This document shows, in pieces, positions 30,409 through 32,952 of a stretch of 64,000 nt of DNA. The position numbers and the translations under genes were made by a program. Every line of letters begins with the position of its first letter. Within the stretch, counting starts at the first letter, position 1. The notes beneath the pieces were generated by a model. The model did not search any database. It saw only the letters and a list, made by a program, of their open reading frames with translations, and was not told the origin of the DNA. This DNA comes from Loigolactobacillus binensis. GTDB lineage: Bacteria; Bacillota; Bacilli; Lactobacillales; Lactobacillaceae. The stretch is taken from positions 62,001 through 126,000 of the forward strand of contig NZ_BJDN01000003.1 of NCBI RefSeq assembly GCF_005405165.1, given 5' to 3'.

Positions 30409-30411
30409 ACT

Positions 30412-30449
30412 AAAAGAGCAAAATCGTGATCGCGATTTTGCTCTTTTTT
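30412..30449. terminator. Terminator after the DUF2187 gene
   Basis: AAAGAGCAAAATCG / CGATTTTGCTCTTT perfect 14-bp stem followed by T on the plus strand and by A-rich sequence on the other side, between convergent genes. Confidence 0.93.
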
Positions 30450-30524
30450 AATTTAAAGCAGGTTGGTCGTCTTCAGTTAGTGTTAGAATTACTTGCGTTA
30501 CTTATTTACGGTCATTGATTGCGA

Positions 30525-31187
30525 TCATTTTGTCATCTGATCGTTTAATTTATCAACGGCTTTGGTCGGCCCGACTACTGACAGCTCATCGTTAAGTTGG
30601 ACGACGTCACTGCCAGCTGGAGAGACTGTGACCTGATCGCCGTGTTGGATCGCGATCACAGTGAGGCCAAAGCGCTGATGAAAACTGAGCTCGGTTAAGC
30701 TTTTACCGACAAATTCAGGGCTGGTCATTTTGACTTCGGCCATTGTAACATCATCATTGATCGCTAAATAGTTTAAAATATTCGGTGACAACAAGTGGTG
30801 TGCTACCCGAGCGCCCATGTCACGTTCGGGGTGAACCACTTGATCAGCGCCGATCCGTTTTAACACCCGTGCGTGGGTATCATTTTCCGCCTTAGCCGTG
30901 ATATCAGGCACGCCTAGTTCTTTGACGATCAAGGTCACCAAAATATTAGCCTGAATATTTTTACCAATAGCAACGATGACGTGATCGAATTTACCGATCT
31001 CCAGTGAGCGCAGGGTTTCTTCATCCTGCGCATCAGCGACAATTGCCTGAGTAGTCACAGCGGCCAGCGTATTGACCCGTTCTTCGTTAACGTCGATCGC
31101 CAATACATCTTGTTCTTCAGCGGCCAGTACGCGGCAAATACTGGTACCAAAACGACCTAAACCGATCACGGCAAAATTTTGTTTCAT
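30525..31187 (-). CDS. ktrA: KtrA/TrkA-type potassium uptake regulatory protein
   Basis: 220-residue cytoplasmic gating ring subunit of a Ktr/Trk potassium channel. The N-terminal RCK domain has VIGLGRFGTSIC (nucleotide-binding Gly9, Gly11, Gly14), then IDVNEERVN with the acidic ribose-binding position and VADAQDEETLRSL; the C-terminal RCK_C domain (about residues 138-215) could bind cyclic di-AMP. The ktrB membrane partner is not adjacent. The ATG has only a weak RBS (CAGG, 12 bases away), and the start of transcription may lie within or close to the right end of the TnpB element immediately upstream. Confidence 0.88.
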   Translation of the reverse strand: MKQNFAVIGLGRFGTSICRVLAAEEQDVLAIDVNEERVNTLAAVTTQAIVADAQDEETLRSLEIGKFDHVIVAIGKNIQANILVTLIVKELGVPDITAKAENDTHARVLKRIGADQVVHPERDMGARVAHHLLSPNILNYLAINDDVTMAEVKMTSPEFVGKSLTELSFHQRFGLTVIAIQHGDQVTVSPAGSDVVQLNDELSVVGPTKAVDKLNDQMTK

Positions 31188-31274
31188 TAGTAAGTTAGCC
31201 TGCTATGCAAAATATAGAGTAATGTAGGTAATCGTTACGAATTACCACATTTAGAAAGATTGCATTTTTCCTTT

Positions 31275-31381
31275 CATTATTTTACTCGCTGCCGTTAAGA
31301 CGCTGGTATTCCGATAGGCCACCAGGGCGTAATCACATTGACCAACTAGGACAGCATCAGGGCAAAGCCTGCCCCTTTGTT
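31275..31381 (-). ncRNA. Candidate omega RNA / right end of TnpB element
   Basis: In IS605-family elements the guide (omega or reRNA) runs from the 3' end of tnpB to the right end. Directly after the tnpB stop on the minus strand comes GGGGCAGGCTTTGCCCTG, with a short hairpin GGGCA/TGCCC, and about 90 bases of GC-rich sequence (GCCCTGGTGGCC, CCAGCGTCTTAACGG) before the AT-rich flank at about 31275. Boundaries are estimated from composition. The guide would be the flanking bases leading into the ktrA leader. Confidence 0.45.
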
Positions 31382-32530
31382 TTAGATTAATGCTAATAAA
31401 TTAGTCACGGCATTCTCATTGCGTTCAAGTGTCGCGCCACAGTGATAACAAACATATTCGTGGTGCTTGGTTTTGTGCGCGATATTTCCTTGCAAAGTAA
31501 TTTTATCGTTGCCGGACTTGATATAGCCGCATTTTGAGCAACGTTGGGTTGACGGATAATGCTTATCAGCCAAAATCAACACTTTACCATACCACTCACA
31601 CTTGTAGCTCAATGTTTGGCGGAAATAGCCAAACATCGACCGTTGCAGGCCTTTTGAAGCCACATGTGTCATCTGCATTTTTTTAACTGATAGATCTTCA
31701 ATGACTATTCTGTCGTAATCAGTCACTAACTGAGTCGTGAACTTCTGCATGATATCATGCTGGATATTGGTCACCTTGCGATAATCCCGTTGCAACTTGG
31801 CTCTCGTTGCTTGGTAATTATTGCTTTTAGTTGCCTGTTTGCCATTCACGACCCGTTTGCGGGCTAAGCGTTTCTGATAAAATTTAATGCGCTGATACAA
31901 TCTTTGCAAGCGCGTAGGTAGCGTGTTGACCACGCCGGCTGTGTAGTTCAGATGGCCAACATTAACATCAACTGCCGAACTTTTGCCCGTTTTAGGCTTA
32001 GCTTCAACCGCAACTTCAAACGGTAAACTAGCCCAATATTGGCCATTTTCACGGTAAATACTAACCACTTTGAGTACACCGGTTAAATCAACATGTCTGT
32101 TAATCCGGATGTCATACCAAACTTTAACGTCACGCGGTCTATCCAACCGCAGCTTACCATTTATAATTTTAGCGCGATCCGTTTTAAAACCTTGCCGTGG
32201 CGCGCGCTTTGACTTAAATCTCGGCTTACCCCAATCAGGCAGGCTTTTATCAAAAAAATTCTGCCAAGACTTCCCAAGATCAGCTATTGCCAACTGTAAA
32301 GTTCTTGCCGACAACCCATATTGCCAATCAGCTTTAGCGGCCACCAGCTCATTGCGCACAGAATAAGCGCTCGGTCGGAGACTACTATGCTCAATTGTGT
32401 GTAAATCGTACATGTCGTTCCAAGTTGCTAGACCTTGATTCCAACAATAACGGCGATAATCGCAAAGACTATCGAGAACTTTTACCATATGCCGGTTGGG
32501 ATAAAGTCTAACCTTTTGTGCCCGCAGCAT
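31382..32530 (-). CDS. tnpB: TnpB, RNA-guided nuclease-like protein with altered RuvC site
   Basis: 382-residue IS605 TnpB, ancestor type of Cas12. The N-terminal helix-turn-helix (LRAQKVRLYPNRHMVKVLDSL) is intact. RuvC: Asp188 in AVDVNVG and Glu278 in IVIEDLSVKKM are present, but the usual C-terminal R-D-x-N-A motif reads R-N-E-N-A, placing Asn371 where the third catalytic Asp is expected. The zinc ribbon is complete (CSKCG and CYHCG). Start at 32530 follows GGTGGTG with 6-base spacing. Full length and no frameshift, so it is conserved but possibly cleavage-deficient or dependent on Glu372. Confidence 0.9.
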   Translation of the reverse strand: MLRAQKVRLYPNRHMVKVLDSLCDYRRYCWNQGLATWNDMYDLHTIEHSSLRPSAYSVRNELVAAKADWQYGLSARTLQLAIADLGKSWQNFFDKSLPDWGKPRFKSKRAPRQGFKTDRAKIINGKLRLDRPRDVKVWYDIRINRHVDLTGVLKVVSIYRENGQYWASLPFEVAVEAKPKTGKSSAVDVNVGHLNYTAGVVNTLPTRLQRLYQRIKFYQKRLARKRVVNGKQATKSNNYQATRAKLQRDYRKVTNIQHDIMQKFTTQLVTDYDRIVIEDLSVKKMQMTHVASKGLQRSMFGYFRQTLSYKCEWYGKVLILADKHYPSTQRCSKCGYIKSGNDKITLQGNIAHKTKHHEYVCYHCGATLERNENAVTNLLALI

Positions 32531-32952
32531 TCGTTGCACCACCAATCAAATCGGCGCTGTTTTTCGTTTCTTCCTTATACACATCATATCATCAGATTAA
32601 ATAATAGTCATGCTGTTCAGCTTCATATTTACTTTTATGAATAGCGGCTTACTTTTCTATTTATTTCTGCTTTATTACATATTTTTTCTAATGATTGTTT
32701 CCTCCTGCAAAAAAGGTTAAAAAGTTACTTCTATCATAGCATGCTTGCCCTAGAAACGCAGTCAAAGCGCCTGATGTTGTGCGAAAGTCAATTACTGGTC
32801 GTTTTAGTTAACTTATGTTAAAATAAAAAATTAAAAAATTTTGCGCAACCTATTGTATTTAGATCCGATTATTGTTATAATTTACTTACAAATAATAAGT
32901 TATGAATTATTTGTGTTGTCGTACAAAAATTTTTGACAAAGGGGCGTTTTAA
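32531..32952. other. Gene-free stretch between tnpB and the Spx paralogue
   Basis: AT-rich, 420 bases. It should include the left end of the TnpB element and its promoter (unresolved). For the Spx gene there is a promoter TTGTAT (32853-32858), 17-base spacer, TATAAT (32876-32881), and a 5'-leader hairpin CAAATAAT/ATTATTTG at 32889-32913. Confidence 0.6.

What the first reader, a model, noticed from the sequence alone, without database searches (positions are those of the whole stretch)
31275..32600. Solo TnpB with the third RuvC Asp replaced by Asn, placed directly upstream of ktrA
TnpB is otherwise intact (HTH, D188, E278, zinc ribbon, no frameshift) but reads R-N-E-N-A where R-D-x-N-A is expected. 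Nuclease-dead TnpB-like proteins have been described as RNA-guided repressors. Here no TnpA is present and the omega-RNA-like 3' end runs into the leader of a potassium-channel regulator, so the guide would be made from the ktrA leader sequence. This could be an exapted RNA-guided regulator or a dying element.
Basis: partly seen in the sequence, partly recalled or inferred. Interest (0 to 1): 0.62.

Follow-up and report, generated by a model that had tools for sequence, protein, structure and literature searches.

The report
One mutated copy of jumping gene
A lactic acid bacterium carries one copy of an ordinary RNA-guided mobile element whose cutting enzyme has lost a key catalytic residue; its place in front of a potassium-regulator gene reflects where this element family usually lands, not a demonstrated regulatory role.

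Summary
The window holds a tnpA-less IS607-type TnpB element (31200-32701, minus strand) with both ends, an intact 3' guide-RNA scaffold and an open tnpB. Codon 31420-31418 reads AAT (Asn) at the third RuvC Asp (ISDra2 D361 by alignment). The change is one G-to-A step private to this copy: the three other full copies in the genome and 51 of 51 readable loci among 55 others examined (47 distinct places) have Asp. It is this copy's only departure from otherwise invariant columns in 38 proteins.

The place before ktrA is a family trait. The element inserts after AGGAG, the published TAM of most active IS607 TnpBs, here mostly a Shine-Dalgarno site: 37 of 43 located right ends abut a start codon. 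No other TAM-plus-guide site lies in the genome within 3 mismatches, the five same-genus ktrA loci found lack the element, and the ends are intact.

Best reading: a nuclease-inactivated IS copy, not a domesticated regulator. Purifying selection along its branch leaves a small opening for a retained binding role.

The parts
31200..32701 (-). Solo-tnpB IS607-type element, left end at 32701, right end ...GCATAGCAG at 31200, 1502 bp
   Evidence: Ends set by comparison with the C7, C4, C6 and C19 copies and relatives
31382..32545 (-). tnpB, 387 aa from TTG (ATG at 32530)
   Evidence: HTH_OrfB_IS605, OrfB_IS605, Cas12f1-like_TNB; NF040570 guided_TnpB 239 bits, cut-off 100
31418..31420 (-). Codon AAT, N376 (N371 from ATG): third RuvC position; GAT in the three other full copies
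31967..31969 (-). D193, most likely the first RuvC Asp
   Evidence: alignment ambiguous by two residues
31697..31699 (-). E283, RuvC Glu
31200..31381 (-). Predicted guide-RNA (reRNA) scaffold, up to 182 nt, 3' of tnpB; Rfam RF03014 core at 31297-31354
   Evidence: 36.3 bits, under the gathering score 42.8; consensus fold of 20 copies, window copy forms 49 of 51 pairs
31180..31199 (-). Predicted 20-nt guide GCTAACTTACTAATGAAACA: 12 nt of ktrA leader plus ATGAAACA of ktrA
   Evidence: guide position by analogy with PMC11061315
32702..32706 (-). AGGAG next to the left end: TAM / probable former Shine-Dalgarno
   Evidence: TAM 5'-AGGAG in PMC11061315
32707..32952 (.). Probable former intergenic region between the spx-like gene and the AI-2E permease; keeps the stretch GCATGCTATGATAG, like the one found before the permease in relatives
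   Evidence: Comparison with same-genus genomes
30525..31187 (-). ktrA (TrkA_N, TrkA_C), separated from its partner ktrB
   Evidence: ktrB on contig C9

Best explanation
The feature is a tnpA-less, non-autonomous IS607-type TnpB element that has lost (or nearly lost) nuclease activity by a single private missense change at the third RuvC Asp. Shown by sequence: both ends, open tnpB, intact 3' guide-RNA scaffold, Asp in the sister copies and in every readable relative examined, left flank AGGAG. Inferred: loss of cutting (Ala at the corresponding position abolishes cutting in ISFba1; Asn was not tested there). The element sits before ktrA because this family integrates right after AGGAG, which in these genomes is mostly a Shine-Dalgarno sequence, so its guides usually span a start codon. 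It also lies on the junction of a reciprocal exchange between the ktrB|ktrA and AI-2E-permease leaders, both at AGGAG; a one-ended recombination event of the IS607 serine recombinase is the simplest account (inferred). The substitution is probably recent and neutral (inferred): the target site is occupied and paralogues with an intact triad are present, so cutting by this copy is dispensable.
For: One G-to-A step; Asp in the 3 other full copies of the same genome and at 51 of 51 readable loci among 55 others (47 distinct places, because four are held in two collections; four loci are cut short of the residue). D376N is the only violation of an otherwise invariant column in this copy among 38 aligned proteins; the other 37 have 0-4, none in the triad. 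Position fixed by alignment to ISDra2. Published ISFba1 D371A loses cleavage and plasmid interference (PMC11061315). Ends, tnpA deletion and sister tnpA genes. Landing before start codons: 37 of 43 right ends against 17.9% of control positions. GGAG at the expected place by the left end: 15 of 25 candidate left ends, 14 of the 16 whose core has at most one mismatch. ktrB-ktrA adjacent in 5 of 5 same-genus loci and split in this genome.
Against: The window branch shows strong purifying selection, not decay: 40 private synonymous against 13 nonsynonymous changes, like its sister copy (43 and 17; Fisher p 0.68). If the substitution were old, that would suggest a function kept without cutting. Only one genome of the species is held, so its age and frequency are unknown. 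Cleavage by an Asn variant was not measured, and no usable structural model was obtained.
Confidence: 0.85

Rival explanations
1. Exapted TldR-like RNA-guided repressor: the dead TnpB keeps guide-RNA and DNA binding and, with its ktrA-leader guide, represses ktrA in cis or a matching site in trans.
For: Catalytic residue lost; tnpB otherwise intact and constrained; scaffold intact, 49 of 51 pairs; natural precedents of binding-only TnpB/Cas12 relatives (TldR, PMC13418256 passages; Cas12m, PMC10442227 passages).
Against: TAM plus 15 guide bases occurs within 3 mismatches only at the element's own right end, with AGCAG, and single changes in the AGGAG TAM abolished cutting by ISFba1. The 16-nt guide alone gives 37 sites at up to 3 mismatches against 26 for the reversed control. 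The element is absent from 5 of 5 same-genus ktrA loci. Transposon ends intact.
Confidence: 0.06
2. The enzyme still cuts: Asn, or the neighbouring E377, takes over metal binding.
For: Some Cas12m clades are listed with DND and NED triads (PMC10442227 passages), though none with DEN; E377 is next to the position.
Against: E377 is also present in most Asp-bearing relatives, so it is not a compensating change. The nearest tested change (D371A in ISFba1) is dead.
Confidence: 0.06
3. The Asn codon is a sequencing or assembly error.
For: Draft assembly of 97 contigs with several copies of the element.
Against: The copy differs from its sisters at many sites (89% protein identity at best), so mixing of copies is unlikely at this place; a single-base error cannot be excluded without reads.
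Confidence: 0.03

Closest known systems
IS607-family TnpB, ISFba1 (PDB 8IAZ; PMC11061315)
   Same: 387 aa; guide RNA wholly 3' of tnpB, scaffold of similar length; AGGAG next to the left end; IS607 serine TnpA in sister copies
   Different: Third Asp is Asn; tnpA deleted in this copy; Rfam match is RF03014 Transposase-1, no RAGATH-18 match; distant in sequence (profile E 7.8e-24)
ISDra2 TnpB (IS200/IS605)
   Same: Aligned over nearly the whole length, third Asp and Glu in register
   Different: Y1 transposase family and TTGAT TAM (both recalled); guide RNA overlaps the gene (PMC11061315, section 12)
TldR nuclease-dead TnpB-like repressors (PMC13418256)
   Same: RuvC catalytic residue lost, guide-RNA scaffold kept
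   Different: Ends intact, association with ktrA not conserved, no TAM-bearing target found
Cas12m (PMC10442227)
   Same: Non-canonical RuvC triad in a TnpB relative; Cas12m2 binds without cutting
   Different: CRISPR effector with HDD and other clade-level triads; here a change private to one copy

Membership tests
IS607-type TnpB element | TnpB with HTH, RuvC and zinc-ribbon domains | tested here: met
   The NCBIfam IS607_TnpB and IS200_TnpB exception models score under their cut-offs (125 of 350; 195 of 425); the general guided_TnpB model passes
IS607-type TnpB element | Serine-recombinase (MerR plus Resolvase) TnpA in the family | tested here: met
   Not in the window copy, but before tnpB in the C6 (complete frame) and C4 (broken frame) copies of the same genome
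IS607-type TnpB element | AGGAG TAM beside the left end | tested here: met
   TAM from PMC11061315
IS607-type TnpB element | Guide-RNA scaffold 3' of tnpB | tested here: met
   by sequence and fold only, no RNA data
IS607-type TnpB element | Intact DED RuvC triad | tested here: not met
   DEN in this copy, DED in the sister copies; activity not measured. It is a mutated copy of such an element
TldR | RuvC catalytic residue lost | tested here: met
   by sequence only
TldR | Stable genetic association with a non-transposon gene | tested here: not met
   0 of 5 same-genus ktrA loci carry it; strains of the same species not available
TldR | Loss of transposon ends (recalled criterion) | tested here: not met
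   Both ends match sister copies
TldR | Guide matches a host target next to a TAM | tested here: not met
   only its own right end, TAM mismatched; 3-mismatch limit, own genome only
TldR | RNA-guided binding and repression | not testable with these tools
   Needs ChIP and expression assays

The most novel reading that the evidence does not exclude
An IS607 TnpB caught at the first step of domestication: one substitution removes cutting while selection keeps RNA and DNA binding, so the particle can now sit on its own right-end/ktrA junction (perfect guide match, TAM one base off: AGCAG for AGGAG) without breaking the chromosome, and damps the shared tnpB-guide RNA-ktrA transcript. Because the family mostly lands on Shine-Dalgarno sites, most such inactivations would at once create a start-codon-directed binder.
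Probability: 0.05. Interest if true: 0.7.

Novelty: new member of a known kind. Interest (0 to 1): 0.33.

Why it matters
It shows how a dead TnpB next to a regulator can look like a domesticated one when the evidence does not support it: in this family, lying directly upstream of a gene follows from the AGGAG target. The same property, if general, means that guides of these TnpBs mostly cover start codons, so an inactivated copy starts life as a potential start-site binder, a testable route to RNA-guided repressors. The split of ktrB from ktrA at the element is a concrete case of an IS607-type element at a rearrangement junction.

Tried and rejected
AlphaFold2 on the window protein with 12 relatives gave mean pLDDT 39.7, pTM 0.34: not usable, so no fold search was run and the active-site claim rests on sequence alignment. 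RAGATH-18 was not among the Rfam matches; RF03014 matched in all 10 loci, over its gathering score in five relatives and under it in the four own-genome copies and L061. A trans target for the guide was sought and not found. Frequency of Asn within the species could not be tested. Recombination between two element copies followed by precise excision of one also explains the operon split and is not excluded. The plasmid search gave relatives at 72% identity or less. Paper searches for a link between IS607 TnpB and Shine-Dalgarno sites or start codons: I saw listings only, 20 of 35 papers, 20 of 111, 3 of 3; no title or abstract start shown reports it. PMC11061315 has 0 occurrences of 'start codon', 'ribosome' and 'insertion site' in its main text; the Shine-Dalgarno passage of PMC13418256 concerns a fliC leader. 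The original TldR paper did not appear in the listings (20 of 34; 20 of 43) and was not read. PMC6188088 (IS607 recombinase; GG target dinucleotide) and PMC11844463 (TnpB mutational scan) were seen in passages only.

Limits of the counts: one search was given 52 loci; 9 had no right end located, and the 43 include several copies per genome; the six misses are L004, L039, L046, L058, L066 and L074. Six of the 37 use TTG or GTG. One search was given 52 loci and found a left-end core in 25; nine of these had two mismatches (eight of them misses, several probably false cores); L040 (GGAA) and L041 (shifted by one base) are the two misses among the 16 good ones. One search used 38 of the 56 loci.

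Full report
WHAT IS THERE. tnpB is a single open frame at 31382-32545 on the minus strand, 387 aa from TTG. Pfam and the NCBIfam guided_TnpB model identify it as a TnpB. At 31420-31418 it reads Asn. Alignment to ISDra2 TnpB puts N376 on D361 and E283 on E278, both in the pairwise and the profile search (positions counted from the printed chain). The first Asp is D193 on D191 in the profile alignment to ISDra2, but the pairwise alignment and the profile alignment to ISFba1 TnpB (8IAZ) shift by two residues onto N195; D193 and N195 are both invariant in the family, so D193 is the likely residue. The 387-aa IS607 protein ISFba1 has the triad D194, E290, D371; alanine at these positions loses cleavage in vitro and interference in E. 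coli (PMC11061315, sections 6 and 12 and passages read). The 8IAZ alignment stops before D371, so that equivalence is by inference.

THE SUBSTITUTION IS PRIVATE. The genome holds four full copies, one fragment at a contig end and one distant TnpB. The other three full copies read RDEN, RDKN and RDKN; the window codon AAT differs from GAT by one G-to-A step. Of 55 other loci, 51 reach the position and all 51 have Asp (47 distinct places; L055, L056, L057 and L065 repeat places held in another collection); L009, L011, L053 and L054 do not reach it. In a 38-protein alignment the window copy violates one otherwise invariant column, D376N; the other 37 violate 0 to 4, none in the triad.

SELECTION. 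dN/dS between the own-genome copies is 0.06-0.10, with dS 0.63 between the window and C7 copies. Changes private to the window copy (polarised by C7 and C4) are 40 synonymous and 13 nonsynonymous, against 43 and 17 in the C7 copy (Fisher p 0.68). So tnpB has not decayed along this branch; the substitution is either recent or tolerated. The data cannot date it.

ELEMENT ANATOMY. The C4 and C6 copies carry an IS607-type serine-recombinase tnpA before tnpB; the C6 frame is complete, the C4 frame is broken. The window, C7 and C19 copies share a left end of about 150 bp that runs into tnpB without tnpA. The element runs 32701-31200, 1502 bp. The stretch between tnpB and the right end (182 nt) holds an Rfam RF03014 match (36.3 bits, gathering 42.8) and shares a consensus fold with 19 other copies; 19 of 51 pairs have at least one two-sided change. 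The window copy forms 49 of 51 pairs.

WHY IT LIES BEFORE ktrA. Of 52 loci, 43 had a right end located; in 37 a start codon opening an ORF of at least 60 codons follows within 3-16 nt, against 17.9% of 107,629 control positions (binomial p 5e-22, which treats copies as independent). GGAG precedes the left-end core at the same distance in 15 of 25 candidate left ends, 14 of the 16 with at most one mismatch in the core; GGAG makes up 0.14% of positions. AGGAG is the TAM in 18 of the 22 strains whose IS607 TnpBs cleaved (43 TnpBs from 41 strains were tested; PMC11061315). At the topB copy, the flanks GGAG|TTTAAATG resemble the uninterrupted leader GAGGTTTAAATG of G007; the leaders of the other six relatives differ more. 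So this family mostly integrates between Shine-Dalgarno and start codon, and its guides usually span start codons. The ktrA position is one instance.

THE SPLIT OPERON. ktrA was found in five of seven same-genus relatives; in all five ktrB lies directly upstream and the element is absent. In this genome the one TrkH-family gene found, ktrB, is on another contig, followed by an AI-2E-family permease with the junction AAGGAG|GTCATTATG. In three of seven relatives the permease is the divergent neighbour of the spx-like (ArsC family) gene, which in the window lies upstream of the element; the stretch between the spx-like gene and the element still holds a sequence like that found before the permease in relatives. 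In the other four relatives the two genes are apart or on different contigs, so the ancestral order is inferred. The exchange looks reciprocal, with both breakpoints at AGGAG. A single IS607-recombinase crossover between one element end and a target is the simplest account; recombination of two copies and excision of one is the rival.

REGULATOR? The predicted guide is GCTAACTTACTAATGAAACA. The TAM plus 15 guide bases occurs within 3 mismatches only at the element's own right end, with AGCAG for AGGAG. The 16-nt guide alone gives 37 sites at up to 3 mismatches against 26 for a reversed control. Single TAM changes abolished ISFba1 cutting. TldR proteins are described as inactivated TnpBs, many with strong associations to non-transposon genes (PMC13418256, passages read). 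Here the association is not conserved, the ends are intact and no target is found. I file it as a mutated copy of an IS607-type TnpB element, not as a TldR.

ORGANISM. 

Noticed in passing
43 right ends in L001-L078: Right ends of this IS607 TnpB subfamily abut start codons in 37 of 43 cases; good left ends are preceded by GGAG in 14 of 16. Guides therefore mostly span start codons.
   Followed up: partly
window 31187-32952 and L031 1400-1500: ktrB-ktrA operon split by an exchange with an AI-2E permease leader, both breakpoints at AGGAG, element at one junction.
   Followed up: partly
L036 1-331 (contig C19 end): A further solo copy, 96% identical to the window copy over its left 330 bp, is cut by the contig end; the rest was not found.
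   Followed up: no
L034 9460-10139: The IS607 tnpA of the copy before topB is in two frames.
   Followed up: no
G001, G002: No ktrA match at E 0.001 in two same-genus genomes; G002 has 13 matches to this TnpB.
   Followed up: no
window 30411-30450: Terminator-like hairpin seen by eye between a small plus-strand ORF and the 3' end of ktrA; its weak Rfam match to a plastid 3' UTR family is under the gathering score.
   Followed up: no
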